A stretch of DNA of 53,119 nt from a virus: the IMG/VR virus record IMGVR_UViG_3300046511_000171, positions 1 through 53,119 of that record; one strand, written 5' to 3'. Shown one piece after another: positions 1 through 53,022 of the stretch (its first letter is position 1; each line of letters opens with the position of its first letter). Under the pieces are notes generated by a model. That model made no database searches and was not told where the DNA came from. It worked only from the letters and a program-made list of their open reading frames with translations. The translations under genes were made by a program, and so were the position numbers.

Positions 1-252
1 TTGCGGTTCAGCAACGCCACGGGTGGCGCCAACCTGGGCCAGTCCGACGCCGACACCCGCGCCGCCAACGCCGCCGCCCAGGCCAAGGCGGACACGGCAT
101 GGCAAACCCAGGTCGCCGGGCTCTACTCCGGGCTGGGTAATCTGGGCGCCTACGCCGCCGGGCGCTACGGCCCGGCGATCCTGCCCGGCGCCAGCGGTCA
201 GACGCCCTACAATCCCAACATCAACATGAACCTGCCGCCGACGATCACATAG
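1..252 (+). CDS. C-terminal fragment of internal virion protein (5' end cut off)
   Basis: This is the last 83 codons of a gene whose start lies outside the window. The reading frame is open from base 1, and the TTG at base 1 is not a real start. Residues 5 onward match the C-terminus of the 365-residue protein at 49624-50721 almost residue for residue (for example GGANLGQSDADT and LYSGLGNLGAYAAGRYGP). Only the last dozen or so residues differ. By that homology it is an Ala/Gln-rich internal virion (ejection) protein. It sits 10 bases upstream of the Pro-rich gene at 263, the same order as at the right end of the window. Confidence 0.8.
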   Translation: MRFSNATGGANLGQSDADTRAANAAAQAKADTAWQTQVAGLYSGLGNLGAYAAGRYGPAILPGASGQTPYNPNINMNLPPTIT

Positions 253-262
253 GACCTGAGTC

Positions 263-2185
263 ATGCCAGAGTTCGCCAGCGCGATGCCTCAGTTTTTCAA
301 CACGGGCAACGCATCGTTCGACAAGTTGAACAGCCTTGGATCGTTGTTCGGTGATCCCGCTAAAGCCGCCCAGGCCGGTTACTACGGCGCTGAAAGCGCC
401 AACGCGCTCATCAAGGGCTACCAAACCCGCGACCAGATGGGTCAGCAGCGGTATTTGCAGGAACTCACGGGCGGTGGGGCGGGCACCGGTCCCATGGCGA
501 TCCCGGGACCAGCCGCGCCGCCGGGACCAGAGGCGCCCCCGGGGCTGGTCATTCCCGGGACCAACGTGGGCGCGCCGCCCCAACCCACCGCCGCGCCGTC
601 GTCCCCGTCGCTGGCGAGCATCGTGGCGCCGGGAGCGCCCGGCGGCGCCACGCCGACCGCCGCTCCGGGTCCCGCGCCGCCGGGGGGCGGCGTGAGACAG
701 GCACCCCCGGCGCAGGCGAACGGCTCGCCAACCCCTCCCATGGTGAACCTGCCCTATCTCATGGCGACGGCGGCACGCGCGGGCATGGACCCGAACGTGG
801 TGAAACTCCTGGGCACGTCCTGGATCAACGGGCAAATCCAGTCTGGTGCCATGGACAAGGCCACGGGCGAGCGGTTCCTGTCCGGCGCCGGGGACAGCGC
901 GCCCTTGCAAGCCACGACAGCCATCACGACCGCCGGCATCCAGAGCCGCACCACCCTGGCGCTGCCAGGAGCGCAGACGGCGGCGACGCAGACCTTGGAA
1001 GACGAGAAACCGCTTGTCGTCATCGCGCCCGATGGAACGCGTATTCCAACCAAAGTGGGCATATGGCGCCAGAACCCCGCCATGGGACGGCCCGAAAACC
1101 AATACGACCAGCAACCCGTGACGGTGCAACCGCCGACACCGCCGGGCGGCGCGGCGCCGCCGCCCGTCATGACATCGACGGGACAGGCGACGACGCAGGG
1201 CCAGACGCCCTACGAGCCAACGCAGGCCGCGCACGACAAGAACAATATCTCCATCGTCACGCCGCAGGGCGAGGTCATCACCACCACCGAGGGCGGTTTG
1301 CGCGCGAACCCCGCGCTGGGCCGCAAGTACGACTCGCAGGTGGACGGCGCGCTGGTGGCGTCGGTGGACCCGGCCACGGGACACACGATCTGGCGGTTGG
1401 CCCGCAACGCCGAGGGAACGCGGGTGGGACCGGCGACCACCGATCAGGCGAACGCGCAGGCGGTGACGCGCGCGGCGGCGTTGGACGAGACCGGCAGTCC
1501 CCTGGCCGACACGGTCATGGGTGCCTACCAGCGGGCGCAACTGGGCCTGACGCCGAGGCAGATGATCAACCCGGACCAGCACGCCCGGATGAAGATGGAA
1601 AGCGACGCGTATTTCCAGAGCCTCTACCCGGTACCGAGCGGACCGCATCTTTTCACGTCCACCGGCCCGGTCCGGCCATCCCAGGACTCCATGGCGCTGC
1701 ACGACAGCATCACGCGCTCGCTGGAGACGACTTCTTACAAGACCGACCCCGCCGCCGCCGCGACCAAAGCCTGGGACATGATGCGCGAAGCCGGTGTCCT
1801 GGACGACCCGGCGACCGCCAGGAGTGTCGGGGTCAGACACATGGGCACCGAAGACCCGAGGCGGACGAACGCGGACGAACTCATCATCAACAGCGATATG
1901 AGCAAGGTGGGCAACCTCAAATGGCCCGGCGCCGGGCCGCGCGGGGCGCCTCCCGGCTTCACGCCGCCCACGGCGAAGACCCTTACCGATACCGTGGCAC
2001 CAAAGACAGCGGGACCGCGCGCCGCCTCGACGAAGATGCCACCCGGCGCGCTGGCGCCGGCCCCGCCGGGGGCGGTTGAAGGTCAGACCGCCACCGGTCC
2101 CGGCGGCCTCAGGGCCGTCGTACAGGGTGGCTGGCTGATGCCTTTGCAAAACGCGGCGTCCGGCGCGGGGGGCGGCGGCGGATGA
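263..2185 (+). CDS. Pro/Gly-rich virion-associated protein (640 aa), paralogue of 50725-53019
   Basis: I do not recognise a catalytic family. The protein begins with a short variable head, then a segment shared with the 764-residue protein at 50725 (QAGYYGAESANALIKGYQTR near residues 37-56). A Pro/Gly/Ala-rich linker follows. Next comes a conserved core (MVNLPYLMATAARAGMDPN onward, about residues 160-390), including a small beta-rich stretch around KPLVVIAPDGTRIPTKVG. The C-terminal third has little likeness to the paralogue. Its place between internal virion genes and the transglycosylase suggests a virion or ejection role (inference). ATG 263 follows the previous stop by 10 bases. The gene ends in a run of Gly codons. 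Confidence 0.8.
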   Translation: MPEFASAMPQFFNTGNASFDKLNSLGSLFGDPAKAAQAGYYGAESANALIKGYQTRDQMGQQRYLQELTGGGAGTGPMAIPGPAAPPGPEAPPGLVIPGTNVGAPPQPTAAPSSPSLASIVAPGAPGGATPTAAPGPAPPGGGVRQAPPAQANGSPTPPMVNLPYLMATAARAGMDPNVVKLLGTSWINGQIQSGAMDKATGERFLSGAGDSAPLQATTAITTAGIQSRTTLALPGAQTAATQTLEDEKPLVVIAPDGTRIPTKVGIWRQNPAMGRPENQYDQQPVTVQPPTPPGGAAPPPVMTSTGQATTQGQTPYEPTQAAHDKNNISIVTPQGEVITTTEGGLRANPALGRKYDSQVDGALVASVDPATGHTIWRLARNAEGTRVGPATTDQANAQAVTRAAALDETGSPLADTVMGAYQRAQLGLTPRQMINPDQHARMKMESDAYFQSLYPVPSGPHLFTSTGPVRPSQDSMALHDSITRSLETTSYKTDPAAAATKAWDMMREAGVLDDPATARSVGVRHMGTEDPRRTNADELIINSDMSKVGNLKWPGAGPRGAPPGFTPPTAKTLTDTVAPKTAGPRAASTKMPPGALAPAPPGAVEGQTATGPGGLRAVVQGGWLMPLQNAASGAGGGGG

Positions 2186-2225
2186 GCGCGGTAGCAGCTC
2201 ATGTGAGTGAGCGGAGCGAACGAAC

Positions 2226-2795
2226 ATGAGCGATATTGACAGCATGATCCGGGGCGCCGCCGAGAAATACGGCCTGGATCACGACATATTCCGCCGCCAG
2301 TTGGTGGCCGAAAGCGGGCTCAACCCGAACGCGCGCAACCCGTCCGGCGCCGCCGGCATCGCGCAGTTCATGCCCGGCACCGCGCGCGGCCTGGGGATCG
2401 ACCCGATGGACCCGTCCCAGGCGATCCCGGCGGCGGCGCTCTACCTGCGCCAGAACCTGAACAAGTTCGGCGGCGACTACACGCACGCCCTCGCCGCCTA
2501 CAACTGGGGACCGGGCAACGTATCGCGGAACGGCGTGGGCAACCTGCCCTCCGAGACCCGAAACTATATCGCGAAGATCATGGGCGGCAGCGGCGGCGGT
2601 CCCCCGGCGCCGACCGGCCCACTCCCATCAGCGGGACCGGACGCGCCAGCCGGACCGTTGATGGCGGCGGCGGCGCCGGCTGGTCCTCCCCTGCCCTTGC
2701 CGCCGCCGCCACAAGATCCCGCCACCCCGGGCGCGCCCACGTCGCTGGCGGATGCTTTCACCCAGGCCGCGCGGCGCGGCCAGGGTCTCGCCTAG
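2226..2795 (+). CDS. Lytic transglycosylase, SLT domain (virion-associated)
   Basis: The first 100 or so residues form a goose-lysozyme-like SLT domain. The catalytic Glu is E29 in ESGLNP, followed by GIAQFMPGTA (44-53) and AYNWGPGN (91-98), the classic motif order for soluble lytic transglycosylases that cleave peptidoglycan glycan strands. From about residue 125 the chain becomes Pro/Ala-rich and probably disordered. There is no signal peptide, as expected for an enzyme carried in the virion that opens the wall during DNA entry. A GGAG element lies about 9 bases before ATG 2226. The start of a second copy, with MANIDDMIRG for MSDIDSMIRG, is cut off at the right end of the window. Confidence 0.9.
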   Translation: MSDIDSMIRGAAEKYGLDHDIFRRQLVAESGLNPNARNPSGAAGIAQFMPGTARGLGIDPMDPSQAIPAAALYLRQNLNKFGGDYTHALAAYNWGPGNVSRNGVGNLPSETRNYIAKIMGGSGGGPPAPTGPLPSAGPDAPAGPLMAAAAPAGPPLPLPPPPQDPATPGAPTSLADAFTQAARRGQGLA

Positions 2796-3299
2796 ATGTC
2801 CGGCGCCCAGACCGATCCGCTGGACATGACGGATCAGTACAACACGCCGCTCACGCCCGAGGGCGAGACGCAATACCAGCAATGGCTGACGCAACAGTCC
2901 CAGGCGGCGGGCCGGGACATGTCTCGCGATACCTACGACTATGACATGCGCGGTGCTTTTCTTGGCGGTGCCGGTCGAGCGGGCAACGGGCACTATCCCG
3001 ATACTTACAAGAAACCCAACCACCCCAGCTTTTCGGATCAGAGCCAGTATAACGGCGCTGACGGTCATCAGGGCGGCGCGTGGTCGCAGGCGCCCGGCGG
3101 CGCCTGGCAGTTCACGCCCGGCCCCACCAACCTTCAGATGCACGGTCCCGCCGGCTTGCAAAACTACTTCCAACGGGGGGACCCCGGCGTGATCCTGAAC
3201 CTGCCCCCGGCGCCCCCGGCGCCGGTCCCGCCAGCGGCGCCCCCGGCGCCCATGTCAATGCTGGACTATGTCCGCGCGGCGATGACGAGGAACGGTTAA
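2796..3299 (+). CDS. Hypothetical protein (167 aa)
   Basis: The ATG directly follows the stop of the transglycosylase gene, and its own stop directly abuts the ATG of the giant gene at 3300, so the three genes are tightly coupled. The protein is rich in Gln, Gly, Pro and Asp with no membrane segment. A low-complexity Pro/Ala stretch lies near the C-terminus (about residues 130-155), followed by a short helical end. I recognise no family. Its position suggests an internal virion or ejection component (inference). Confidence 0.75.
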   Translation: MSGAQTDPLDMTDQYNTPLTPEGETQYQQWLTQQSQAAGRDMSRDTYDYDMRGAFLGGAGRAGNGHYPDTYKKPNHPSFSDQSQYNGADGHQGGAWSQAPGGAWQFTPGPTNLQMHGPAGLQNYFQRGDPGVILNLPPAPPAPVPPAAPPAPMSMLDYVRAAMTRNG

Positions 3300-6200
3300 A
3301 TGCCGCCGCCGCTGGACGACACCAGTTCGACGCCGGGGGTAGAACTACCTGACTTCGACAAGCTGGTTCCCTTGGGGCAAGCGGCGCAGCCGATCCAGCC
3401 CCAGTCCCAGCCCCAGGCGCAGACACAACCCCAGCCCCCGGTGCCGCTGCCGGACTTCGACAAGCTGGTCCCGTTGGGACCGGTGGCGCAGCCCCAGCCC
3501 CAGGCACAGGCCCAACCACCGGTTGAACTGCCTGACTTCGACAAGCTGGTCCCGCTGGGACCGGCGGCGCAACCGGCGCCGTCCACGTCCGAGCCCGTGG
3601 GGTTTTTATCCTCCCTGTTCGGCGGGATCGGCGCGTCAGGCCGCGAAGCCGGGCAACTCGCCACGGGTGAAGGCTTCAACCCCGCCAACGTCCAGGAACA
3701 GCCTGAACGCACTTTCATGGGCGGCGTGGGCTACGGGCTGGGGCACTCGTTCCCCACGCTGGCCGGCATGGTGCTGGGCGCGGCGGGCGGCGGCGCGGCG
3801 GGGACCGCCATCGAACCGGGCTTCGGCACGGCGGTTGGAGGTGCCCTGGGCGGCGCCGCCGGGGGCGGCGTGACCGACTTCGTGCAAAGCCTTGTCCCGG
3901 CCTACCAGGACGCCATCAGGCGGGGCGCCACGCAGGATGAAGCGGTCGACGAAGCCTACAAGATGGCCGGCGCGTCGGGTGCTTTCACGGGCGTCACCGC
4001 GCCCTTGTTCGGGCTCAGCCCCTTCAAATCCGTGATTAAGGACCTGCTGTTCCACACCCTGGTCACGGGTCCCGGGACCGGCGTGGTCAAACAAGGCGTG
4101 ATCGACCCGGCGGTGACAGGCCAGCCCACGCCCGGCCTGGGCGAACTGGCCGAGGGCGCCGTGCAGAACGCCATCGGCGGCGGCATCGCCGGGGGCGTCA
4201 TGCACTACGGTCCCCAGCTTGGCCGGCGGATCGTGGGTCTGCCTACCACATCCGGTGAGACAGCCACCCCAGCAGGACCAGACACGTCACCGTCGATAGC
4301 ACCGACAGGCCCAGCGCCAACCAGCACAGACATTCCACCGCGACCCACGCCTTTCACCGATCTGGTCCGTCCCCCGCCCGAGGGCGTGGCGCCGGGCGAG
4401 GCCGTGCCGATCACGACGCCGACGCCTGAGCCTCCACCCATACCACCAAGGGAGACACCCCCGAATGCCACCACAGCCCAACCCCGTCCCGGCGAGCCCG
4501 CCGCCGCCCCTGTTATTCCCGAACCGCCCGCCGCTGTCCCGACCGGCGCGGAAACCGCCCGTCCTGGTATGGAGCCGACCGCCCGTCCAGTTGGAACTAT
4601 TCCCGTGGATGAAACCCGTCCCGGCGAAGTTCGACCCGCTGGAGTGGAAGGGCCAGCCCCTCCTGCCCCGGAACCCGCCGCCCCAAGCGTAGCGCCCACG
4701 GCGGTCCCGGGACAGCGTGAACCTGTCCCGGGACAAGCCGAACCCCCGGACAAAAATACCTTACCCCCGGACAAAAATACTCCGGCGCCTGAAACCCCGG
4801 GCACCCCCGCATATAAGTTGGCCGAACTGGATCGGATCAACGCCCCGGACGAAGCCTACCGCGACGCCCTTTCGACCGGGTCCAAGGACCCGCTCAAACC
4901 GGGCGAAACATGGCGGGACCGGCTCGTTAAGTGGGTGGACCAGGAACGCGCCGCCGCGACCGCCGGGGAAGCCGAGACTTCCGCACAGGGAGCGAACGCA
5001 CCGGGAACAACCCCGGCGGTGGTCCCGAGGGAGCCCGCTTCGGCGGAACCGCCGCCCGCATGGCGCGCGAAGAACCCGGACATTCCAGCCACGCTTTACC
5101 GAGGCTCCGGGCGCGAGGACCAGACAGGCGTCTACAATCCCGCCGGGGGCACGCCGGTCCCGATCCTGGGACCTGGGCGCTATCACGCGTTCACCGAGGA
5201 ACACGCCAAGACCTACGGCCCGAACATCGAGACCACGCCCAACGATCTGCGCAACCCGCTGATTATCCGGTCCGACAACGAGTGGCGAGCCTTGACCCGG
5301 GAAGCTGGATGGGAGTTTCCCAACCCGTTCGGGGCTGACAAGGCCAAGGTCGAGACCATGACGAACGACATGCGCGAACTGGTCCAGTCCAAGGGCCATG
5401 ACGGCGTGATCGTCACGTTCGACACCAAGACCGACCGGGACGTGGACAGCCAGGGCCGGGGGATAAAGACCCTCCGTAACGTGTTCGACGTGCCCCAGGT
5501 GGTGGACTACCGCGCCCGTGAAACGCCGGGGGCACGGGTGACGGACCAGGAAGCGCCCGGCACCCTGGAGTCCCGCGCGGGCTTCCGGCGCAAGGCCCCG
5601 GCGCCGGGCGAGCCCGAGCCGACGCCGAACCGGGTCCGCGCCAAACCCCCGGGCGAACCCGTGGTCACGCCCCACCCGGGCGATCCGCTCACCCTGGAGG
5701 ACTACGCCTACAGCAGGGGCACGTCCGCTTACCGCGACGCGCCCGAGGAAGCCTTGCGCGGGACCGGGATCAACCCGAAGACCTTCACCAACCGGCCCAT
5801 CCTGGAACAGAACAAGATCCTGGCCGATCAACTCAAGGCCAAATACGGTTTCACCAACGTCGATCTTGAACCCCGCACGGTCACGGTCACGCCGGACGGC
5901 AAGACCCGGACGCATCCCGCCGTGGAGCCGAAGATCACGCGCGATTGGCTGCTGAACGTCCATCACAATATGCAAAACATGGCCCACGCGCTGGGCTGGA
6001 GTCAGGAAACCGTCGCGTTGAACGGGCGCCTGGGCCTGCATCTGGTGCCCTACAACTTCAAGGGCGAAAACTGGTATGGCAGCTACAGTTTCGCGGACAA
6101 GACCATTCACATTTCAGGCGGTTCCAACAGCTACGCGCACGAGCATTGGCACGCCATCGACGACTATATGACCGATCTGCTGCACAATAATCCGAACAAA

Positions 6201-9200
6201 CAGCAGTTACTGACCTGGAGTGCGAGGGACGGCGCGCTGGACCCCAAGGACCCCGTGCAAAGCGCGTTCGCCCGCGTGCTGAACGCCATGTCCTACAACC
6301 GGGGCGAGGAAATGCTGCGCCGGCTGAGACTTGAGCAGACCGCCATGAAGATGACCAAGGCGGGCCGGCCCACCACGAGCGCGCTGTTGGCGCGGGCTGA
6401 AATCGAGAACCTGGACAAGGGCGCGTCGAAACTGCGCATCGGACCGTCCGACCTGCGGACCGAGGCTTTGCGCGGTCCCAACCCGCAATACTGGGCCAGC
6501 CATCACGAACTGTTCGCGCGGGTGGGCGAAGCCTACACCGCCTACCGCATGGAAGCGGCGAGCATGGACCCGGCGGGCGTGGTCAAGTCCAACAAAGCCT
6601 ACCAGGACCGCGCTTTGGCCGAGATCCGCCACCGCTATCCGAACTGGATCGACCGCATCGACATGTTCCACGCGTTCGACCAACTGGTCACGGAGATGGA
6701 GCGCGCCAGCACGTTGAGCCAGGGCCAGCCCCCGGCGGGACGCACGACCGAAGCGCACACGCTCAGGCCCTGGTCGGAGCGCCCGGCGGATATCAGGCCC
6801 GGCTTCCTGACATCCGTCCGTAACGACCTGAGCGCCTTGCGTTGGAGCAACCTCGTCAAGGGCGAACACGAGCCCCTGTTCAAAGACCCCAACGCCACTC
6901 CGGCGCCCCTGGATTACAGCACCCGCGCGGCGAAGAAGACCGGCGTGGCGACACCCAAGACCCTGGGCGTGCAACGCGCCGACGACCTCGCCATGACCTG
7001 GAACTCGGCCCTGGGCAACCTGGACCGGATGATTAAGCAGATGAACCCCGCCGCGCGGCCTTTCATCCAGGGCATCCGGGACAAGCTGGGGTCAGCGCCC
7101 GGATCGGGCCGGCCCGTGGACGAGAGTTTCGAGGAACGTATCAAGCACCGGGGCAACCCCGTCGTGTCCGAGTGGGAGGACGCGCTGAAAGACGCCGGGC
7201 TGAAAAGCCGGTTGACCGGACGGGCCTACATGAACCCGGAACAGAACGCCATGTTCCGGCACACGATGCAGACCGGGGAGACGACCTACCCGCTGAACGC
7301 CCACGACCTTACAGGCATCGGGCCGCGCAAGCCGATCCCGGAGAACATCCTGGCGGCGGCGGAAAAGACCCGGTTCATCGAGGACCGGCTGCACGACCAG
7401 ATCGTCGGCACCGAGGGCCTGGAGGACACCGGCTACGCCAGCGGCCATGTGTCCCGCGTGTTCGATGACCGCGCGATCCGCAACGACAAGGAGGGTTCGA
7501 CCCGGGACCGCACCCGGCTCAACCAGTTCATTTTTGATAACGACATGAAGTTCACCGACCCCAGGGAGCGCCAGAACCTTCGGCCCGACGAAGACAAGCC
7601 GGAACGTCTTTACCAGTGGTGGCGGGAAACCCCGGAGCGGGACACGCCGATGTTCAGCCAGGACGCGCGCGACGCGATGGCCCAACTGGGTAAGAACCTG
7701 AACCGGATCAAGGCCATCGACGAGGAACTGAAGGCGGGACCCGGCGGGGCCGGCGTCAACCCCACCACCCACGACCCCATCAAACTCGGCGCCGAACGGG
7801 ACCAGCTTGTCCGGGACAACCTGGACATCCACGATGAACACGTAACGCACATCCGGGACCAGATCGCGCATTACGAAGCCCAGAACTGGTGGGACCGCAT
7901 CGCCAAGGGCGATCCCCTGGATTTCGCCACCATGGGACCGGACAGCCGGTTCACCAAAGGCCGCACCCTGCCGCCCGAAGCAGACCAGATCATGCGGGAC
8001 TGGATGCACAAGGACATGCTCACCAGCTTCCCCAACTATGCGCACGGCGTCGCGCGCAAGATCGCGTTCACGGAGTTGTTCGGCGCGGATGGCCGGGCCA
8101 CCCAGAACGCCATCGACAAGGCGGTGGACCACGGCATGAACGGCAACTTCTCCACGCCCATCCGTCAGGTCGTGGAAGCCGTCACGGGCCGGTCGATGCG
8201 CGGCAACAATGACCCGGGTTTGCAGCGCACCACCAACATGGTCTCGGCGCTGGGTCAACTCATGCTCCTGCCCGGCGCCAGCATATCCGCCGTGGGCGAG
8301 CCCTTCGGGACACTCCTGGCGGGGGGTAGCCCGAAGATGATGTTCGGCACGTTCACGCGCATGGCCGGCGCCATGCTCCACACCCCGAGCGCCGCCGAGC
8401 GCATGGCGGGGATACGCGCCATCGGCGGCACCACTTCAGTCCTCCAGGGCGCCGCCGCCGCGTCCCGCTACACCGACTACGCCGGCACGCCGACCATCGA
8501 GAAGTTCATGCACCGGTATTTTGAACTGGCGCTGTCCCCGGTGGTGCGCTGGATCAGGGCGGCGACCTACGGCGCCGGCACCCAGCATATCAAGACACTC
8601 CTGGATCTGGCGACCGACCCGGCGGTGACACGCCGCCAACTGGATCGACAGGCGGACGCCAAAACTCTGCTGCACGACTGGTATGCCCAGGACCACCAGT
8701 TCGAGGGTCTGAAGGACCTGTTGAGGCCGTTCAATGATGTGCCCGACCGGGTCACGCTCAAGAACCACCCGATGGGACCGGTCTTCGAGGTCATCGCGAA
8801 CCGGATGCTCAACCGCATGTCCCAGGACCCCACGGCGGCTGAGAAGCCGCTGGGGGCGCTGCGCAACCCCATGGTGAACATGCTCGCGGGGCTGACCTCG
8901 TTCCCCTACGGGTTCATGCGGAACGTCGTGGACCCGGCGATGCACCGCGCGGCGCAGGCGAAGCAGCGCGAGTGGGACCGGCGGATCGCGGCGGGTGAAA
9001 GCCCCACGAGTGCCCGGTTCCAGGCCGAGGCAGCGCGGTTCAAGACCTGGGTGCATACCGCTATCGGCGGGCTCACGCTGCTGGCCGGGACCGGGCTGAT
9101 GTTCGCGCCGCGCTCCTACCTGTTCAATCAGGCGGCGTGGCAAAAGCACGAGGACGACGGCGACCTGTTTGATTGGCTACTGGGCTCCACGATTGACGCG

Positions 9201-9854
9201 TCGGGGCTGCTGGGACCGCTCGCCGCCGTGGGGCAGGCGTTCACCGCGCTGCGCTACACGGCGGACCTGAGCAACCTGGTGGAAGGCCCCTACCTCGCCA
9301 CCGAGACCCGCTACATGATTGATATCATCAAGGGCGTCATGCACGCTTTCGGCGGTTCCAGCGACGGCACCAACACCGAGACCTACAACGCCATCCACGG
9401 GCTCACCCAACTGACCCTGAAGCCGGGCGCGTTGGCGAGCATGGCGTGGCTGGCCAACCGCCTTCCCGCCGGACCCTTGTCGGGGTTGATCGGCGCCATG
9501 TCCATCGCCGCCACGTCCCCCACGGTGACGCGCGGACTCACCGATTTCGCCGCCGGGCCACGCGGAACCAAGATCAAGAAAGAGTCCGCCGACCCGTTCG
9601 CGCCGCCGCCCCTGGAGCCCCTGCCCTTGACCGACCTGGAGCAGGCCCAGGCCAAGGGCGAAAGCGTGGGCGGCGGTCCGCCGTCCTGGATGATCGGGCT
9701 GACGGACGACATCCTGGTGCCCGCCATGCGGGTGGTCCCTGGCTGGGGTAAACCCTTGCTGGCCGGCGGCGCGGCGCTGGGCGGTGTCGGCGCTCTGCTC
9801 AGATCCGGGCACCATTACAAGACCGAGGGCGAGTCGCCGGTCAAGGCTCGCTGA
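3300..9854 (+). CDS. Giant polyvalent/internal virion protein (2184 aa) with ART-like and HExxH metallopeptidase-like segments
   Basis: Domains seen in order: three copies of LPDFDKLVPLG (residues 16-26, 50-60, 77-87) separated by Pro/Gln linkers; a Gly/Ala-rich hydrophobic region (about 140-300); a long Pro/Thr-rich linker (about 305-590); a segment starting LYRGSG at 599 and running to about 740 that looks like the ADP-ribosyltransferase-like fold of phage polyvalent proteins; and an HEHWH motif at 947-951, matching HExxH of a zinc metallopeptidase. Long helical regions follow, with hydrophobic segments near 1645-1675 and 1920-1942. Such multi-domain proteins are known from phages and conjugative elements and are thought to be delivered into the host with the DNA. 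The neighbouring transglycosylase fits an ejection-protein role. Domain assignments rest on motif reading only. Confidence 0.8.
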   Translation: MPPPLDDTSSTPGVELPDFDKLVPLGQAAQPIQPQSQPQAQTQPQPPVPLPDFDKLVPLGPVAQPQPQAQAQPPVELPDFDKLVPLGPAAQPAPSTSEPVGFLSSLFGGIGASGREAGQLATGEGFNPANVQEQPERTFMGGVGYGLGHSFPTLAGMVLGAAGGGAAGTAIEPGFGTAVGGALGGAAGGGVTDFVQSLVPAYQDAIRRGATQDEAVDEAYKMAGASGAFTGVTAPLFGLSPFKSVIKDLLFHTLVTGPGTGVVKQGVIDPAVTGQPTPGLGELAEGAVQNAIGGGIAGGVMHYGPQLGRRIVGLPTTSGETATPAGPDTSPSIAPTGPAPTSTDIPPRPTPFTDLVRPPPEGVAPGEAVPITTPTPEPPPIPPRETPPNATTAQPRPGEPAAAPVIPEPPAAVPTGAETARPGMEPTARPVGTIPVDETRPGEVRPAGVEGPAPPAPEPAAPSVAPTAVPGQREPVPGQAEPPDKNTLPPDKNTPAPETPGTPAYKLAELDRINAPDEAYRDALSTGSKDPLKPGETWRDRLVKWVDQERAAATAGEAETSAQGANAPGTTPAVVPREPASAEPPPAWRAKNPDIPATLYRGSGREDQTGVYNPAGGTPVPILGPGRYHAFTEEHAKTYGPNIETTPNDLRNPLIIRSDNEWRALTREAGWEFPNPFGADKAKVETMTNDMRELVQSKGHDGVIVTFDTKTDRDVDSQGRGIKTLRNVFDVPQVVDYRARETPGARVTDQEAPGTLESRAGFRRKAPAPGEPEPTPNRVRAKPPGEPVVTPHPGDPLTLEDYAYSRGTSAYRDAPEEALRGTGINPKTFTNRPILEQNKILADQLKAKYGFTNVDLEPRTVTVTPDGKTRTHPAVEPKITRDWLLNVHHNMQNMAHALGWSQETVALNGRLGLHLVPYNFKGENWYGSYSFADKTIHISGGSNSYAHEHWHAIDDYMTDLLHNNPNKQQLLTWSARDGALDPKDPVQSAFARVLNAMSYNRGEEMLRRLRLEQTAMKMTKAGRPTTSALLARAEIENLDKGASKLRIGPSDLRTEALRGPNPQYWASHHELFARVGEAYTAYRMEAASMDPAGVVKSNKAYQDRALAEIRHRYPNWIDRIDMFHAFDQLVTEMERASTLSQGQPPAGRTTEAHTLRPWSERPADIRPGFLTSVRNDLSALRWSNLVKGEHEPLFKDPNATPAPLDYSTRAAKKTGVATPKTLGVQRADDLAMTWNSALGNLDRMIKQMNPAARPFIQGIRDKLGSAPGSGRPVDESFEERIKHRGNPVVSEWEDALKDAGLKSRLTGRAYMNPEQNAMFRHTMQTGETTYPLNAHDLTGIGPRKPIPENILAAAEKTRFIEDRLHDQIVGTEGLEDTGYASGHVSRVFDDRAIRNDKEGSTRDRTRLNQFIFDNDMKFTDPRERQNLRPDEDKPERLYQWWRETPERDTPMFSQDARDAMAQLGKNLNRIKAIDEELKAGPGGAGVNPTTHDPIKLGAERDQLVRDNLDIHDEHVTHIRDQIAHYEAQNWWDRIAKGDPLDFATMGPDSRFTKGRTLPPEADQIMRDWMHKDMLTSFPNYAHGVARKIAFTELFGADGRATQNAIDKAVDHGMNGNFSTPIRQVVEAVTGRSMRGNNDPGLQRTTNMVSALGQLMLLPGASISAVGEPFGTLLAGGSPKMMFGTFTRMAGAMLHTPSAAERMAGIRAIGGTTSVLQGAAAASRYTDYAGTPTIEKFMHRYFELALSPVVRWIRAATYGAGTQHIKTLLDLATDPAVTRRQLDRQADAKTLLHDWYAQDHQFEGLKDLLRPFNDVPDRVTLKNHPMGPVFEVIANRMLNRMSQDPTAAEKPLGALRNPMVNMLAGLTSFPYGFMRNVVDPAMHRAAQAKQREWDRRIAAGESPTSARFQAEAARFKTWVHTAIGGLTLLAGTGLMFAPRSYLFNQAAWQKHEDDGDLFDWLLGSTIDASGLLGPLAAVGQAFTALRYTADLSNLVEGPYLATETRYMIDIIKGVMHAFGGSSDGTNTETYNAIHGLTQLTLKPGALASMAWLANRLPAGPLSGLIGAMSIAATSPTVTRGLTDFAAGPRGTKIKKESADPFAPPPLEPLPLTDLEQAQAKGESVGGGPPSWMIGLTDDILVPAMRVVPGWGKPLLAGGAALGGVGALLRSGHHYKTEGESPVKAR

Positions 9855-24280: not shown

Positions 24281-24300
24281 TATGGGACAAATGGGACAAG

Positions 24301-24426
24301 AAACTCAGCACTCAGCACAGTTTAGCTAGCCTTTTATACGTGCGCGCGTATAAGCATATCGGAAGGTACTGGGTATGCCGAGTATATATATAAAAGGCTA
24401 GCTAAACTGTGCTGAGTGCTGAGTTT
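24301..24426. repeat. Perfect 38-bp inverted repeat (50-base spacer)
   Basis: The left arm is 24301-24338 and the right arm 24389-24426, exactly complementary over all 38 bases. The arms read from AAACTCAGCACTCAGC to CTAGCCTTTTATA. After a two-base mismatch on each side, a further TGGGACA/TGTCCCA pair (24292-24298 and 24429-24435) extends the hairpin. The spacer itself holds TATACG-TGCGCG-CGTATA overlapping the arm end. It is far longer than a terminator. Confidence 0.95.
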
Positions 24427-24461
24427 GCTGTCCCAAACTGTCCCACAACGGCGCCGTGGTG

Positions 24462-25457: not shown

Positions 25458-27442
25458 GCGCCCAGATCCGGCGCGGCTTCCTCAAGCATCCGCGCCAGCA
25501 CACCCAAACCGGTTTGACCAAGCGCGGCCAGGGTCGGCACGTTGACGCTGTGACCGTCCGGGAAAGCCGCCGCGACCTGGGGCGCGGCCATGCCCACGCC
25601 AACAACCTCAACGCCCCACGTCCTGGCGACAAGGCAGGCATCGGTCACGCAAGCATTGCCATAATCACAATCGCCATCGGTCAGGACCATCATGACGTGG
25701 CGCGTGGCGTCAATGGTTCGCAGGACTTCGGCGCAACCCAGAATGGCAGGGCTCAGCGGCGTCGTGACATGCGGTTGCGCGGCCATGATCCGGTGTGCGT
25801 TGGCGCGTACGGCCATGCCGAACGGCAAGAGCGGGATAAGCCGCGCGCTCGCCACGTCAACGATATCATTGTCCTGGAAGCCATACACGGCCACCTTGGC
25901 GCCGGCATCTTCGGCAGCGGCGGCAAGGTGGAACGCGGTCACACATGCCATGGCGTGCGCCGTGCCTCGCATTGACGATGACAGGTCGATCAGGACCAGA
26001 AGCGCGGTATCCATGCCGGGGGTCTCTTGCTTCCGGCTGAATACGTCCAGGGCGCCCGTGCCGATGCGCGCGAGGGCGCGGCGATCGAGCCGGCCCGACG
26101 TTTCGCGGTGTGTCACCGACACCCGTTCCGGCGAGACCAGCAACCGCGATATCTGGCCATGCAACACCGCGCGTCCAGGCAATGCCGCGTTGTATGCCGC
26201 GACATGCGGCATGGGATCGGCGCGCGACACGTGGGACGGCAACGCCACGGTCACATTGCGATATCCATGCAGGCCGCTGCCCATGGGCGCCGGCGCATCG
26301 GGCGCCTGGCGCTCCGTGATGGCTTGCGTGACTTCGGCCAGGGTTTCGCTCGCTTCGGGCGCATCGTCCAGGCTGTAAGTCTCCGAACCATCGTCGTGAC
26401 CGGCGCCAGGGGCGTCCTGGCCGCTCTCAGGGGCGTCCTGGCCATCCTGAGCCTCGCCAGCCTCGCCATCGGCGCCATCGGCGCCAGGGGCGTCCTGGCC
26501 GCTCTCAGGGGCGTCCTGGCCATCCTGAGCCTCGCCAGCCTCGCCATCGGCGCCAGGGGCGTCCTGGCCGCTCTCAGGGGCGTCCTGGCCATCCTGAGCC
26601 TCGCCAGCCTCGCCAGCCTCGCCATCGGCGCCAGGGGCGTCCTGGCCGCTCTCAGGGGCGTCCTGGCCATCCTGAGCCTCGCCAGCCTCGCCAGCCTCGC
26701 CATCGGCGCCAGGGGCGTCCTGATCCTCTGGTGGCGCGGGCGGTGGCGGGGGCGGTGTGTTAGCCGCGATAATCTGGCGTTCCAGGTCCACCATGCGCAT
26801 GGCCAGATTGTAAACGTCATACGTTGAGCGGCAGGATTTAACTTCCGTCAAAGCCTGATCGACAAGCCGCGCCACGTCCGGGTGTAGCGCGCCACGCAAG
26901 CCCCTCGCCGCGGGCACGGTGTAGCGGTTGGCCATCCTGCCCAAGATCGCCACGCAATAGGGCGCGTCGGCAATCCTGGCGCCGATGGTGCGACCGTCTT
27001 TCGCGGCGCGCGTCAAACCCTGGTAGTGAACATGATCGGTCGTCGCGCTCAGGATGCCGCGCAAGGCGGGAAAGTGTCCCGCGCGGAGTTCCTTTGCCTC
27101 AATGCGCACGTCCTCCAGGCAATTTGCCCAATGGCGCGTCCTGGCGCCGGCTTGCACGCAATGGTGCCACCATTGCCAGTCCGTGTGCAGCACGTGCAGA
27201 CACTCGTGGGCGATGAAGCCCAGCATCCTGTCCGCTTCGGACCGGGACAGCACGGTGGACGCCGGCAGGCTCGGGAGGTTCATGATGACCGTGCTGCCAT
27301 GGACCTGGACCGACGCGGTGGCGCCACCCTTGGCGCCAACGGTGATGCGCACGGGGCGATTGTTCGCCCCTTTGCGCTGCGCGATGATTTTACCGGCGGT
27401 CTCAGCGGCGGCGGCGGTTACTTCAAGGTAAAGTGTGTTCAT
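25454..27442 (-). CDS. VWA-domain protein with HExxH motif (CobT/DUF2201-like)
   Basis: The 662-residue protein starts at ATG 27442. The N-terminal part has FIAHECLHVLH (HExxH, H79-H83) and NCLEDVRIEAKEL, as in putative metallopeptidase domains fused to VWA. A Pro and Asp/Glu/Gly/Ala-rich linker follows, with four tandem repeats. The C-terminal VWA domain (about 478-662) has the metal site LIDLSSSM (D486) and VLTDGDCDYG. The partner MoxR ATPase is encoded just upstream, 1 base apart. CobS-CobT and MoxR-VWA pairs act as ATP-driven chelatase or remodelling machines. CobT-like genes are known in phages, but their role there is unsettled, and I do not assign a substrate. Confidence 0.82.
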   Translation of the reverse strand: MNTLYLEVTAAAAETAGKIIAQRKGANNRPVRITVGAKGGATASVQVHGSTVIMNLPSLPASTVLSRSEADRMLGFIAHECLHVLHTDWQWWHHCVQAGARTRHWANCLEDVRIEAKELRAGHFPALRGILSATTDHVHYQGLTRAAKDGRTIGARIADAPYCVAILGRMANRYTVPAARGLRGALHPDVARLVDQALTEVKSCRSTYDVYNLAMRMVDLERQIIAANTPPPPPPAPPEDQDAPGADGEAGEAGEAQDGQDAPESGQDAPGADGEAGEAGEAQDGQDAPESGQDAPGADGEAGEAQDGQDAPESGQDAPGADGADGEAGEAQDGQDAPESGQDAPGAGHDDGSETYSLDDAPEASETLAEVTQAITERQAPDAPAPMGSGLHGYRNVTVALPSHVSRADPMPHVAAYNAALPGRAVLHGQISRLLVSPERVSVTHRETSGRLDRRALARIGTGALDVFSRKQETPGMDTALLVLIDLSSSMRGTAHAMACVTAFHLAAAAEDAGAKVAVYGFQDNDIVDVASARLIPLLPFGMAVRANAHRIMAAQPHVTTPLSPAILGCAEVLRTIDATRHVMMVLTDGDCDYGNACVTDACLVARTWGVEVVGVGMAAPQVAAAFPDGHSVNVPTLAALGQTGLGVLARMLEEAAPDLGA
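26403..26725. repeat. In-frame tandem repeats in the VWA gene
   Basis: Units begin at 26403, 26481, 26550, 26628 and 26706, giving periods of 78, 69, 78 and 78 bases (26 or 23 codons). They encode acidic repeats such as DGQDAPESGQDAPGADGEAG. All lengths are multiples of three, so unit gain or loss keeps the frame. Protein-coding content and lack of spacers rule out a CRISPR array. Confidence 0.9.
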
Positions 27443-27443
27443 A

Positions 27444-28994
27444 TCAGGCAACCTCGTCTTCGGTTTCGCCCATGGTATCAGGCGAAACGGGATCAAAATC
27501 ACGCGCGGCGGGCGACGATGACGGGACCGGCGCGGCGGGGTTCAACGCGGCGCGAACGGTGTTCTTGTCCACGGCAAGCAAACACTGTTGGCGCAAAGCC
27601 TCTTGTTCGCCGTCCGGGACACAATTTTGCACGGCGCAACGGAACGCGAGTTCAGGATCATGGCCATCGGCCAGCAACCCCGCCCATGCGAACAAGCGGC
27701 GCAAGCCCAAACCTTCCGTCAATACCTGAGCGTCAGCCGCCGCGCGTGTCGTTGTCGCGGCTTGCACCAGGAGGTTGGCCAGTTCAATCGTGCAACCCGG
27801 GACATATGAAACGATAATGCCCGCCTCAACGTCCGGCGCGTGCCAGCCAAGTTTGATCCTGACGCCGAAACGGTCCAGGGTCGCGGCGTTGAGCGCCTGT
27901 GTCCCGTGGTAGCCGACCCTGGAACCCCCGCCCATGCCGCTTGTGTTATCGGTGGCGAAGAAAATCACGCCAGGGGCGACCTTCACCTTCTGTCCCGTTT
28001 CCTGGACGTAAAGGCTGCGATTGGCGGTCAAAACATTCTGCAACGCGAACAACGCGCCAGGACGCGCGATTGAGGGTTCGTCAATGCACACAACGGCGCC
28101 CGGGGTTTGAATAGCGCGCACAAGCTGTCCCGGTTGAAACGACACGCCTTTACCGTCCCGGGCCGGGACCGTCATGCCTACCAGCGTGGCCGCGTCCGTG
28201 CTGGCGTCACAGGAAATCAGCACGAAGGGTCGGCCCAAACGCGCGGCGATTTGTTGCGCGAACTCCGTCTTGCCCGTGCCTTTGGGACCAAAAAGCATGA
28301 CATTATGACCGCGCCGGATCTCTGTGAGAGCTATCGCGGTTTCCGCCGGCCAAACGTAACGATCATTGACGCACGGCGTATCAGGATGCGCGCCATCCCA
28401 CACCGTCGCGGTTTCGTTTCCAAGAGCGCCGCGCACGCCAAACGCTTTGCGCCATGTCACGGTGACATCCGTTGGCGCGGCGCGCGGGGTGGTCGTGTCC
28501 TGATCGCGCTCAACCTCAACGGTGACAGTCTTTGTGACCACCTTGACCACAGCCGGCTTGCGCGCGGCTATGACGAGGTCCCGGAGCCTCTGATCCAGGG
28601 CGGTAAAGCCGCCGGTCATGATATCGGCGCGCACCGCCTGGACCGTCGCTTCAATGGCGGCGGCGTCATCATTATCAGTCGGGACCGTGGCGCCAGCGGC
28701 GGCGTCGGTATCAGCCGGCGGCGTCATCAGGTCCCGTTCGTCATCATCGGTATCGGTGTCAGCCATCGGCGTGGCTCCCGGGACATGCGAAGGGTGCAGC
28801 ATCATCGGATCAATGCCGACGATGCGAAGCAAGCCGCGCAAGTCAGCCTTTGTCAGATTGTTGATAAGCCGCCCGTTGAGGTTCAGGCGCGCGGCTTGCG
28901 CGTCGATATCATTGGGGTCGGCATTGGCGAGCCGGTCGCGCAAAGCGGCGCGCATGGCGGTGCGCCAAACGGCGCTAGGTGTGGCGTTAGACAT
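27444..28994 (-). CDS. MoxR/CobS-like AAA+ ATPase
   Basis: ATG 28994 gives 516 residues. The N-terminal 180 residues contain a small helical domain and acidic linkers. The AAA+ module has Walker A LFGPKGTGKTEF (236-243 core), Walker B VVCIDEPS (301-308), sensor 1 VIFFATDN (343-350) and an arginine-rich region LDRFGVRIKL. A second-lobe helical region follows. It lies directly upstream of the VWA/HExxH protein gene and would power it, as CobS does CobT or MoxR does its VWA partner. It is the first gene of the leftward cassette, divergent from 29147. Confidence 0.85.
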   Translation of the reverse strand: MSNATPSAVWRTAMRAALRDRLANADPNDIDAQAARLNLNGRLINNLTKADLRGLLRIVGIDPMMLHPSHVPGATPMADTDTDDDERDLMTPPADTDAAAGATVPTDNDDAAAIEATVQAVRADIMTGGFTALDQRLRDLVIAARKPAVVKVVTKTVTVEVERDQDTTTPRAAPTDVTVTWRKAFGVRGALGNETATVWDGAHPDTPCVNDRYVWPAETAIALTEIRRGHNVMLFGPKGTGKTEFAQQIAARLGRPFVLISCDASTDAATLVGMTVPARDGKGVSFQPGQLVRAIQTPGAVVCIDEPSIARPGALFALQNVLTANRSLYVQETGQKVKVAPGVIFFATDNTSGMGGGSRVGYHGTQALNAATLDRFGVRIKLGWHAPDVEAGIIVSYVPGCTIELANLLVQAATTTRAAADAQVLTEGLGLRRLFAWAGLLADGHDPELAFRCAVQNCVPDGEQEALRQQCLLAVDKNTVRAALNPAAPVPSSSPAARDFDPVSPDTMGETEDEVA

Positions 28995-29146
28995 GGGGTG
29001 TTCGTGCTTTCCAAGAGTTAGGGGTGTTTCGTTGGGGTGCAGGACAGTCAAGGCAAGGCAAGGCCCTAAATAGCGCCACCATGGCCAAGCACAACAACAA
29101 ACATGGTCCTGCTTGTGTTTTTCTTCAGGACCGGCATCATCCGGCC
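28995..29146. promoter_or_regulatory. Divergent intergenic region with short hairpin
   Basis: This region lies between the leftward MoxR gene and the rightward gene at 29147 and so should contain a promoter in each direction. A 7-bp inverted repeat GGTCCTG/CAGGACC (29105-29132) lies just before ATG 29147. A triple AAGGC repeat lies near 29061-29074. No clear -35/-10 pair was found. An in-frame ATG at 29081 could lengthen the rightward gene. Confidence 0.4.
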
Positions 29147-29563
29147 ATGAGTGAAACCAACATATCGCCAAGGCGGTCCGGGGGCGGGTGGAAGGGCAAC
29201 CCGGCCAGCATCGTGGCGCTGCACAAATATCGGGTGTCGTTGGCGGACCCGAACCTTCGGCGCTGTGTGCGGTGCCGACAGGTAGCCATGCGAGGGTTAT
29301 TGACCTGTCGGGTGCATGGCCATCGGCGCGGGCGGGACACGCCAGGAAGGTTGGCGGGACGTGTCCTGGACCAAATGAACCGGCGCGGCTTGCTGCCGAT
29401 GGAACTCATGCTCACGGCGGTATGGCGGGACATGGTCAAAGCGCCACGGAACCGATGCGAGCCAGCGAGGTTGGCGCTTGTCCTGGCGTGGGACAGGCGG
29501 GAAAGCGAGCCGCTGGCGTGGGCAAGGGCGTGGCGCGCGGCGCTCGCCGTGGTCCCGGTATGA
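29147..29563 (+). CDS. Small zinc-finger-like protein (138 aa)
   Basis: The product starts MSETNISPRRSGGGWKGNP, then has C-x2-C ... C-x2-HG (CVRCRQVAMRGLLTCRVHGH), like the short zinc-binding heads seen in some phage small terminase and DNA-binding proteins. The rest is Arg- and Ala-rich and helical. The stop overlaps the next ATG as ATGA. A DNA-binding role is plausible; a terminase small subunit is possible but unproven, as the large subunit lies 8 kb away. ATG 29081 is an alternative start. Confidence 0.55.
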   Translation: MSETNISPRRSGGGWKGNPASIVALHKYRVSLADPNLRRCVRCRQVAMRGLLTCRVHGHRRGRDTPGRLAGRVLDQMNRRGLLPMELMLTAVWRDMVKAPRNRCEPARLALVLAWDRRESEPLAWARAWRAALAVVPV

Positions 29564-49623: not shown

Positions 49624-50721
49624 ATGTGTACCGGCGTGGAGATTTCCGCCGCCATGGCAGCCGCCGCGCCCTATATCGCGGCGACTTCGGCGGCGGTGGG
49701 CGTGGGCGGAACGGTCTATGGCGCGGCCCAGTCGTCCGCCGCGCAGAGCCGCGCGGCCCAGGCTCTCCGGGACCAGAACCTCGCCACCAGTCAGGCGCAA
49801 AATCAGGCGTTCAACCAGCGCATGGCGGCGACGCGGGACCAGTCCAACGCGCAGTTCGACACCGCGCAACGGGAGAACGCCGCGCGGCTCACCCAGGCGG
49901 ATGCGACCCGTCAGGCGCAGATGAGCGCGCTGGACCGGCAGAACCAGACCGTCACCGCCGAGAACCAGACCGCTGACCAGCTACGCGCCGCCGCCGATCA
50001 ACGCGCTCAGGAACTGCTCCAGTCCACCACGGCGCCCGGGGGCATGAACCAATCCCAGCAGGGTGCCCAGGATCAGGCGGCGGCGTTGCTCGCCGCGTCC
50101 CAGGCCCCCGGTCCCACCGGTCCCGTCGCCACCAACCCGGACGGGTCCGGCGCGTCCACGTCCACCAATGACCCGGTCATGAAGACCGCGCTGGCCCGGC
50201 GCATGGGCATCGCCGCCGCCAACATACGCCAGTACGGCGCCGACATCGCCAAGGTCGCGTCCTACGGCCAACCGCTCCAGGACACGGGACAGGCGATCAC
50301 CGAGAACCGGACCGCCATCATGCCCGAACAAGAGGCGGCGAAACTCCTGGCGAGCGGATCGGCGGTGCGTTTGCTGCCCTCGCAGATCGCCTACCGCAAC
50401 GCCACGGACTATGGCGGCGCGGTGGATCAGGCGATCCAGGCCAAGGCCCAGGGCGAGAACACCTACGCGGGACTGAAGTTCGGCAACGTCACGGGCGGCG
50501 CCAACCTGGGCCAGTCCGACGCCGACACCGCCGCCGCCAACAAGGCGGCGCAAGCCAAGGCGGACACCGCATGGCAAACCCAGGTCGCCGGGCTCTACTC
50601 CGGGCTGGGCAACCTGGGCGCCTACGCCGCCGGGCGTTACGGCCCGGCGATCCTGCCCGGCGCCAGCGGGCAGACGCCTTCGACCATCGACGTTAGCGGT
50701 TACAAAATAGGGACGCCCTGA
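49624..50721 (+). CDS. Internal virion protein (365 aa)
   Basis: GGAG lies 9 bases before ATG 49624. A hydrophobic Ala/Gly head (residues about 8-40, AAMAAAAPYIAATSAAVGVG) is followed by Gln/Ala/Arg-rich helices (QNLATSQAQNQAFNQRMAAT). The last 80 residues match the fragment at 1-252. The hydrophobic head may insert in host membranes during DNA entry, as for T7 gp14-like proteins (analogy). Confidence 0.75.
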   Translation: MCTGVEISAAMAAAAPYIAATSAAVGVGGTVYGAAQSSAAQSRAAQALRDQNLATSQAQNQAFNQRMAATRDQSNAQFDTAQRENAARLTQADATRQAQMSALDRQNQTVTAENQTADQLRAAADQRAQELLQSTTAPGGMNQSQQGAQDQAAALLAASQAPGPTGPVATNPDGSGASTSTNDPVMKTALARRMGIAAANIRQYGADIAKVASYGQPLQDTGQAITENRTAIMPEQEAAKLLASGSAVRLLPSQIAYRNATDYGGAVDQAIQAKAQGENTYAGLKFGNVTGGANLGQSDADTAAANKAAQAKADTAWQTQVAGLYSGLGNLGAYAAGRYGPAILPGASGQTPSTIDVSGYKIGTP

Positions 50722-50724
50722 ACC

Positions 50725-53019: not shown

Positions 53020-53022
53020 GCC

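What the first reader, a model, noticed from the sequence alone, without database searches (positions are those of the whole stretch)
3300..9854. 2184-residue polyvalent protein with ART-like and HExxH segments
One gene encodes repeat motifs, hydrophobic regions, an ADP-ribosyltransferase-like segment (from about residue 597) and a zinc metallopeptidase-like motif (HEHWH, 947-951), with long uncharacterised regions after. Next to a virion transglycosylase, it is a good candidate for an injected multi-effector that counters host defences at entry.
Basis: partly seen in the sequence, partly recalled or inferred. Interest (0 to 1): 0.7.

Follow-up and report, generated by a model that had tools for sequence, protein, structure and literature searches.

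The report
Phage entry protein with swappable effector
A bacterial virus carries one giant protein, probably loaded into its head and pushed into the host cell with its DNA, in which an enzyme-like module sits in an exchangeable slot between a possible loading tag and a built-in protease, so that relatives of the same virus carry different modules in the same place.

Summary
The 2184-aa gene (3300-9854) is real. Its HEHWH segment (947-951) lies in a zincin: a confident model (pLDDT about 90) matches the lethal-factor catalytic fold in the top 20 rows of the structural comparison (Z 8.8-10.5), with invariant Asp954 and Glu1070/Glu1077. The ART segment is supported by profile comparison (94% against an ART-PolyVal profile; controls at most 12%), but its family-typical His is Arg and its fold could not be modelled, so catalysis is open. 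The long C-terminus is an all-helical body resembling podovirus internal virion proteins (moderate evidence). This is a polyvalent protein in the sense of Iyer et al. 2017, so the kind is known. New here: (1) the ART is an exchangeable cassette: a phage 99% identical downstream lacks it, and relatives carry ddrB-ParB, another ART or unknown domains in the same slot; (2) the N-terminus carries three copies of a short motif, identical in protein but differing by synonymous changes only, and close relatives carry quite different motifs there, each repeated two or three times. Best reading: a capsid-loading or docking tag, an ejected carrier and a changeable effector slot. Injection, ADP-ribosylation, proteolysis and counter-defence are inferred, not shown.

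The parts
3300..9854 (+). 2184-aa giant polyvalent / internal virion protein gene
   Evidence: near-identical copy without the cassette in L002/L003
3345..3377 (+). N-terminal tag copy 1, LPDFDKLVPLG (residues 16-26)
3447..3479 (+). N-terminal tag copy 2 (residues 50-60)
3528..3560 (+). N-terminal tag copy 3 (residues 77-87); 12 synonymous and 0 nonsynonymous differences summed over the three copy pairs
3594..4244 (+). Gly/Ala-rich hydrophobic module (residues 99-315)
   Evidence: 48-99% identical in nine close relatives; composition
4245..4784 (+). Pro/Ala-rich linker (residues 316-495)
4785..4934 (+). conserved left border of the cassette slot (residues 496-545)
   Evidence: 92-98% identical in L003, L004, L005, L009, L011
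5067..5522 (+). ART-like cassette (residues 590-741), absent from L003; 77% identical in L008
5523..5678 (+). right border of the slot (residues 742-793)
5679..6734 (+). zincin metallopeptidase domain including the LPD1 match (residues 794-1145)
6138..6152 (+). HEHWH active-site motif (residues 947-951), followed by invariant Asp954
6483..6707 (+). LPD1 (PF18796) match, residues 1062-1136; holds invariant Glu1070 and Glu1077
   Evidence: (E=3.4e-5, below the curated cut-off)
6735..9584 (+). conserved all-helical C-terminal body (residues 1146-2095), internal-virion-protein-like
2226..2795 (+). SLT transglycosylase (189 aa), internal-virion type
   Evidence: PF01464 E=1e-20; phrog_342 E=1.5e-30
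2796..3299 (+). 167-aa ORF between SLT and the giant gene; present in some relatives and absent in others

Best explanation
The gene encodes a giant internal (ejection) protein of a podovirus-type phage with an integrase gene, a polyvalent protein in the sense of Iyer et al. 2017. Proposed working: (i) during assembly the three copies of the N-terminal peptide dock the protein to a virion partner or loading factor, so that it enters the head (inferred); (ii) the helical C-terminal body sits with the other internal virion proteins and leaves the head with the DNA, as T7 gp16 does, helped by the separate SLT enzyme that opens peptidoglycan (inferred from relatives); (iii) in the host the zincin either cuts the polypeptide to free the effector or cuts a host protein (inferred); (iv) the cassette in the slot between about residues 546 and 745, here an ART-like domain, modifies a host macromolecule (inferred). 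Shown at sequence or model level: zincin fold and active-site residues, ART profile relationship, cassette gain or loss at one slot, independent histories of the modules, purifying selection on the tag peptide.
For: Zincin: HExxH, Asp954 and Glu1070/Glu1077 invariant in 28 of 28 aligned; model pLDDT about 90 over the domain; the top 20 rows are lethal-factor catalytic domains at Z 8.8-10.5, next Z 7.4. LPD1. ART: profile-profile 94.4% with controls; dN/dS 0.33 between the two ART cassettes. Slot: L003 is 99% identical over 742-2184 and 94% over 1-593 and lacks 594-741; ART 77% identical to L008 while zincin is 51% and C-terminus 42% for the same pair; other occupants ddrB-ParB (L004, L005), ART-PolyVal (L011, weak), unknown domains (L005, L007, L010, L017), empty (L003, L009). 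In 23 relatives scanned, 10 carry ddrB-ParB and 3 ART-PolyVal upstream of the zincin; the ddrB-ParB part of L014 matches P1/P7 DdrB (E 3e-29 to 7e-29), and P1 Dar proteins are virion proteins co-ejected with DNA (PMC12810830, PMC9024508, passages). Virion setting: SLT with internal-virion PHROGs, TerL, portal and MCP in the genome, viral-structure matches to internal virion proteins C/D, T7 core and phiM1 ejectosome chains aligned over 290 and 316 residues; family member L019 matches a structural protein of phage KPP25 (E=4e-12).
Against: No virion proteomics for this family was found. The ART model has pLDDT of about 25-60, so its fold is not confirmed, and the family His is Arg. T7/phiM1 Z values (6.2, 5.8) lie below the level at which helical matches are trusted, and higher-ranked unrelated rows exist. 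Foldseek found no PDB match at E<=0.001 for either model. No strong membrane helix. No direct evidence of activity against a host defence.
Confidence: 0.72

Rival explanations
1. A purely structural ejection protein: the zincin-like and ART-like domains are degenerate and serve as spacers or binding modules; only the C-terminal body matters.
For: The C-terminus is the longest conserved part; the ART carries Arg for the family His; the cassette can be lost; N4 virion RNAP packages its MPTase domain unprocessed (PMC5512222 section 8).
Against: The expected zincin residues are invariant in 28 of 28; the ART cassette is under purifying selection (dN/dS 0.33) and other cassettes include ddrB-ParB domains homologous to P1 DdrB.
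Confidence: 0.15
2. The zincin is mainly a self-processing enzyme and the N-terminal repeats and Pro-rich linkers are its cleavage or recognition sites rather than a loading tag.
For: Iyer et al. propose autoproteolysis for polyvalent MPTases and report processing of P1 DdrB (section 8); tag copies lie in Pro-rich sequence; copies of the tag also occur deeper in the protein in L016 and L023.
Against: The zincin is up to 89% identical between phages with quite different tags (L004 and L005), so tag identity does not follow the zincin; tags cluster near the N-terminus, not around the slot.
Confidence: 0.2
3. The tags address host proteins rather than virion proteins: they are host-targeting short linear motifs that turn over with the host.
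For: Tags differ between phages whose MCP (98%) and portal (96%) are nearly identical (window and L009), so a conserved capsid or portal surface is not obviously the specific partner.
Against: They sit at the extreme N-terminus, where P1 DarB has an experimentally shown capsid-targeting signal within its first 30 residues (PMC9024508 section 3.3). No host partner is known.
Confidence: 0.2
4. The ART cassette in the window is an assembly chimera rather than a natural variant.
For: The window's two ends carry two strain versions of the gene upstream of SLT, so strain mixing may have affected this contig.
Against: The reading frame is intact across both borders; the nearest known ART cassette is only 77% identical, so no fetched phage is the donor; L008, L012 and L013 carry the same cassette.
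Confidence: 0.05

Closest known systems
Polyvalent proteins (Iyer et al. 2017, J Bacteriol, PMC5512222)
   Same: Large multidomain phage protein, late-gene location, zincin MPTase with Asp three residues after HExxH, LPD1, ART; relatives with ddrB-ParB.
   Different: Slot-like exchange between near-identical phages and phage-specific tandem N-terminal peptides are not described in the parts read (the whole word 'repeat' does not occur in the main text).
ART-PolyVal (PF18760) / Tox-ART-HYD2
   Same: Profile-level match over the whole domain; similar order of motifs.
   Different: Arg in place of the strand-1 His found in 79 of 80 family members; below Pfam detection.
Gluzincins of the lethal-factor catalytic-domain fold
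   Same: Fold match of the model (Z 8.8-10.5, 190-231 residues aligned, 11-14% identity in the top 20 rows); HExxH and a Glu in a downstream helix.
   Different: A phage protein; only the peptidase fold is shared over the part that aligns. Iyer et al. already linked polyvalent MPTases to this fold.
T7 gp16 and other podovirus internal virion (ejection) proteins
   Same: Helical C-terminal body; partner SLT gene; position among late genes.
   Different: SLT is a separate gene here; the protein is 2184 aa; it carries effector cassettes. Fold evidence moderate only.
P1 DarB and DdrB
   Same: Virion-packaged anti-restriction proteins; [quoted passage not shown] a ddrB-ParB domain occupies the slot in relatives.
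   Different: The P1 DarB N-terminus shows no tandem motif; the window protein has no ddrB-ParB.
Microcystis phage Mae-Yong1326-1 UUJ74515 (2441 aa)
   Same: Only hit among 50,697 phage records: 28% identity over residues 794-2100, E=1e-108; tandem DPWAVV at the N-terminus.
   Different: Annotated as peptidoglycan transglycosylase; no SLT model was hit in its residues 1-1191.

Membership tests
Polyvalent proteins (Iyer et al. 2017) | several domains of disparate activity in one large polypeptide | tested here: met
   zincin by structure and sequence, ART by profile, LPD1; activities themselves not tested
Polyvalent proteins (Iyer et al. 2017) | encoded near late virion genes in phages | tested here: met
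   SLT next to it; portal, MCP and TerL in the same genome
Polyvalent proteins (Iyer et al. 2017) | packaged in the virion and injected with DNA | not testable with these tools
   needs virion proteomics and an injection assay
ART-PolyVal / Tox-ART-HYD2 | detection by the curated model PF18760 | tested here: not met
   no hit at E<=1 in the whole protein
ART-PolyVal / Tox-ART-HYD2 | homology at profile level | tested here: met
   hhalign 94.4%, 141 columns, against controls
ART-PolyVal / Tox-ART-HYD2 | strand-1 His of the H-Y-D active site | tested here: not met
   Arg in the window and L008; His in 79 of 80
ART-PolyVal / Tox-ART-HYD2 | ART fold | tested here: inconclusive
   pLDDT about 25-60 with only two ART sequences in the alignment
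Zincin (gluzincin) metallopeptidases | HExxH | tested here: met
   28 of 28 aligned; 32 of 33 ORFs; partly ascertained by the search pattern
Zincin (gluzincin) metallopeptidases | Glu in a second downstream helix as third zinc ligand | tested here: met
   Glu1070 and Glu1077 invariant inside predicted helix 483-501 of the model, residues 1068-1086; which one binds zinc was not tested
Zincin (gluzincin) metallopeptidases | fold | tested here: met
   Z 8.8-10.5 in the top 20 rows; Foldseek alone gave no E<=0.001
Widely distributed phage MPTase clade of Iyer et al. | Asp three residues after HExxH | tested here: met
   Asp954, 28 of 28
Widely distributed phage MPTase clade of Iyer et al. | conserved His at the end of strand 2 | tested here: inconclusive
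   no His other than those of HExxH among the columns conserved at 75% or more; strand assignment not checked against their alignment
T7 gp16-like ejection proteins | N-terminal peptidoglycan hydrolase in the same chain | tested here: not met
   SLT is a separate gene, 2226-2795
T7 gp16-like ejection proteins | C-terminal helical fold | tested here: inconclusive
   T7 core Z 6.2 over 290 residues, phiM1 Z 5.8 over 316; viral-library matches to internal proteins C/D, E 7e-7 to 1e-6
T7 gp16-like ejection proteins | putative transmembrane helices | tested here: inconclusive
   best 19-residue hydropathy 1.53 at 1647-1665

The most novel reading that the evidence does not exclude
Podovirus giant ejection proteins carry an addressing system: two or three copies of a short peptide at the N-terminus that load the carrier into its own phage's particle, held identical within a phage by selection but replaced wholesale between close relatives, coupled to a separate slot that accepts interchangeable effector cassettes. 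Such particles would be natural protein-delivery vehicles with a phage-specific loading code.
Probability: 0.33. Interest if true: 0.78.

Novelty: new variant of a known kind. Interest (0 to 1): 0.58.

Why it matters
A natural pair of phages whose giant proteins are almost identical apart from the effector cassette, one with it and one without, makes the function of an injected effector testable by simple comparison. A set of relatives with different cassettes in one slot gives a ready list of candidate entry effectors, including unnamed domains. If the N-terminal peptides prove to be loading tags, they would extend to podoviruses the capsid-targeting principle known for T4 internal proteins and P1 DarB (PMC9024508).

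Tried and rejected
Direct family calls for the ART (Pfam, PHROGs, NCBIfam) gave nothing; phage records searched with 183 aa of the region gave no match; pattern search with the two ART sequences found only the three loci already known. A first profile comparison against a single ART-PolyVal sequence was uninformative (1.4%); the 80-sequence profile settled it. Structure prediction of the ART failed, I think for lack of relatives. Foldseek of the C-terminal model against the PDB gave only scattered helical chains, best E 0.8; the realignment covers only what Foldseek ranks highest. A search of PDB sequences gave two hits at E 0.14 and 0.29 that I disregard. PLSDB plasmids: no match.

Partner of the tags: I looked for a virion gene whose divergence follows tag identity. 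None does clearly. The 167-aa ORF is absent in L005, L006, L007, L009 and L011 and present in L002, L010, L012, L017 and the window; this partly follows tag type, but the grouping is post hoc and L017 does not fit simply. One tag-like match outside a giant ORF (L009 phage, in a 211-aa frame) was judged chance. P1 DarB, DdrB and Ulx N-termini show no such tandem motif by eye, nor does the start of the KPP25 structural protein; so tags are not universal. Of 23 N-termini tested, 6 did not beat all shuffles (L014, L016, L021, L023, L031, L032), and in L024 the best-scoring repeat was Pro-rich rather than the tag. Tag patterns were written by hand after seeing the sequences, so the pooled pS/pN values are biased; the window's own 12 to 0 (summed over three non-independent copy pairs) rests on an exact 11-residue identity.

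Rows dropped: one search used 28 sequences; left out were L001 (not entered in that script), L006, L012, L013, L027 (near duplicates) and L034 (my ORF extraction returned nothing). One search used 23; the rest were near duplicates, had open 5' ends, or were L034. Family scans for cassettes covered 23 relatives, not L003, L006, L009, L012, L013, L015, L027, L030, L033, L034.

Literature: PMC5512222 (abstract, outline, passages, sections 8, 9, 32, 34), PMC9024508 (abstract, passages, section 3.3), and passages only of PMC12810830, PMC8954989, PMC9503304, PMC9503650, PMC13299392 (the last only a reference-list mention). Searches that showed me no description of such tags or slots: (search listings; most hits not opened). 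A search for KPP25 proteomics found nothing relevant, so whether its 'structural protein' label rests on experiment was not checked.


Full report
What is there. The window is a 53,119-base virus record. The ORF at 3300-9854 encodes 2184 aa. Upstream lie a 167-aa ORF and a 189-aa SLT transglycosylase whose PHROG matches include internal virion proteins with endolysin domains; the genome also encodes TerL, a portal, an MCP, an integrase and a family A DNA polymerase. Gene content resembles Microcystis phage Mae-Yong1326-1, which has portal, major capsid, tail tubular and packaged-DNA-stabilisation annotations.

Relatives. One of 50,697 phage records matches (28% identity over 794-2100). Profile-guided scans gave 26 loci in viral contigs and 6 in genome contigs; five of the six lie in alphaproteobacterial MAGs, one in Vibrio hannami. 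This hints at alphaproteobacterial hosts but does not establish the window's host. A first scan gave L002, the same contig as L003.

Zincin. HExxH is present in 32 of 33 ORFs extracted; in an alignment of 28, His947, Glu948, His951, Asp954, Tyr1064, Glu1070, Ala1073, Arg1074, Glu1077, Tyr1101, Pro1114 and Arg1119 are invariant. One of the two search patterns contained HExxH, so that part of the conservation is partly ascertained; Asp954 and the later residues were in no pattern. The domain is modelled at pLDDT of about 90. Foldseek gave no match at E<=0.001, though some of its listed rows are proteins I know as zincins (MATCAP, PprI, lethal factor); realignment put lethal-factor catalytic domains in all of the first 20 rows at Z 8.8-10.5, then Z 7.4 and below. 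LPD1 falls on the Glu-bearing helix region, so in this family LPD1 looks like the second half of the peptidase; this is inference. Iyer et al. had already linked polyvalent MPTases to this fold and describe a clade with Asp three residues after HExxH.

ART. Residues 590-741 match no curated family directly. An 80-sequence profile was built from loci found with the ART-PolyVal domains of L022 and L028. Against it, the pair window/L008 aligns over 141 columns at 94.4% probability, score 45.6; 12 other window/L008 segment pairs give at most 0.6%, and 60 column shuffles at most 11.9% and score 22.9. hmmsearch gives E=1.6e-4 for the isolated segment and 0.009 for the whole protein; the best of 200 shuffles has E 1.4. 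The family His (79 of 80) is Arg in both. The structure model of this segment is poor. So it is an ART relative; catalysis is open.

Slot. L003/L002 is 99.3% identical over 742-2184 and 94% over 1-593 and lacks the segment between. The borders are conserved: residues 496-545 are 92-98% identical in L003, L004, L005, L009 and L011, and a right border follows. Between them, among ten distinct close sequences (window, L003, L004, L005, L007, L008, L009, L010, L011, L017), the slot is empty in L003 and L009, holds this ART in the window and L008, ddrB-ParB in L004, ddrB-ParB plus an unknown domain in L005, that unknown domain alone in L007, a second unknown domain in L010, both unknown domains in L017, and an ART-PolyVal-like domain plus more in L011. 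ART identity between window and L008 (77%) exceeds that of zincin (51%) and C-terminus (42%) for the same pair, which points to transfer of the cassette. Across 23 relatives scanned, 10 carry ddrB-ParB and 3 ART-PolyVal (one of them below the cut-off); the ddrB-ParB part of L014 matches P1/P7 DdrB at E 3e-29 to 7e-29.

Tags. The first 100 residues hold three copies of LPDFDKLVPLG. Their codons differ by 12 synonymous and no nonsynonymous changes, summed over the three pairs. In relatives the same place holds other peptides, each in two or three copies: LIPADEWEPV, GWTMDP, SDWVLD, MPDLRDLVPT, GWTYPTLTR, DDSDLPMGSLTPF, DPWAVV, NPFADLVP, DFRPASI, GFEPV and others. In 17 of 23 N-termini no shuffle of 500 reaches the observed repeat score; 6 fail. 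The motif occurs in the window's genome only in this ORF, and in nine other phage records only in the giant ORF apart from one isolated match. Tags swap independently of neighbours: window and L005 share 89% in the next module but have different tags; L005 and L009 share the tag and 93% of the C-terminus but only 58% of that module. The window and L009 differ in tag although MCP, TerL and portal are 96-99% identical, so the partner is not obvious. P1 DarB has a capsid-targeting signal within its first 30 residues, sufficient to load a reporter (PMC9024508 section 3.3); its sequence is not similar. The docking or loading function is inference.

C-terminal body. Residues 1166-2184 model as an all-helical protein at mean pLDDT 71. 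The viral structure library returns unnamed and polyvalent-labelled phage proteins first (E 1e-30), then a phage KPP25 structural protein (E 9e-12) and internal virion proteins C and D of several podoviruses (E 7e-7 to 1e-5). Among solved structures, T7 core (Z 6.2, 290 residues) and phiM1 ejectosome (Z 5.8, 316 residues) chains appear, aligned far longer than the neighbouring rows of similar Z, but below the level at which helical matches are trusted. By sequence, relative L019 matches the KPP25 structural protein at E=4e-12.

Verdict. A real polyvalent protein, most likely an ejection protein, of a known kind. New are the clean effector slot with a natural presence/absence pair, and the phage-specific N-terminal peptide array kept by selection. 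Injection, enzymatic activity and anti-defence action remain to be shown.

Noticed in passing
window 1-2807 and 50400-53119: The two contig ends carry two versions of the gene upstream of SLT (640 aa at 263-2185, 764 aa at 50725-53019). The start is 98.5% like the L009 phage and the end 96% like the L002 phage, and 2243-2322 equals 53040-53119: a circularly permuted contig whose ends come from two strains, or a tandem duplication.
   Followed up: partly
L055:3945-6404 (-): The terminase large subunit of the L002 phage contains an in-frame intein (PF14890, E=3.8e-10); the L017 phage has an insertion at the same place. The window's TerL has none.
   Followed up: partly
L005, L007, L017 slot regions: An unnamed domain (starting near SPKDMVLENLD in L007) is shared by three slots at 36-54% identity without a Pfam match.
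   Followed up: no
L001:16428-23753: The Mae-Yong1326-1 relative has a second HExxH (HELGH at residue 954) upstream of the shared zincin; its 'peptidoglycan transglycosylase' label was not supported by a Pfam hit in residues 1-1191.
   Followed up: partly
window 2796-3299: A 167-aa ORF between SLT and the giant gene is 68-100% identical in four other phages and has no match in five others.
   Followed up: partly
window 24283-24445: A 163-base stretch matches its own reverse complement at 77% (large imperfect palindrome).
   Followed up: no
window 26388-26722: Tandem repeat with units of about 78 bases, 92-98% alike.
   Followed up: no
window 27444-29171 (-): AAA ATPase of the CbbQ/NirQ type (AAA_5 E=1.2e-18, CbbQ_C E=7e-8); the related Mae-Yong phage has CobS/CobT annotations.
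   Followed up: no
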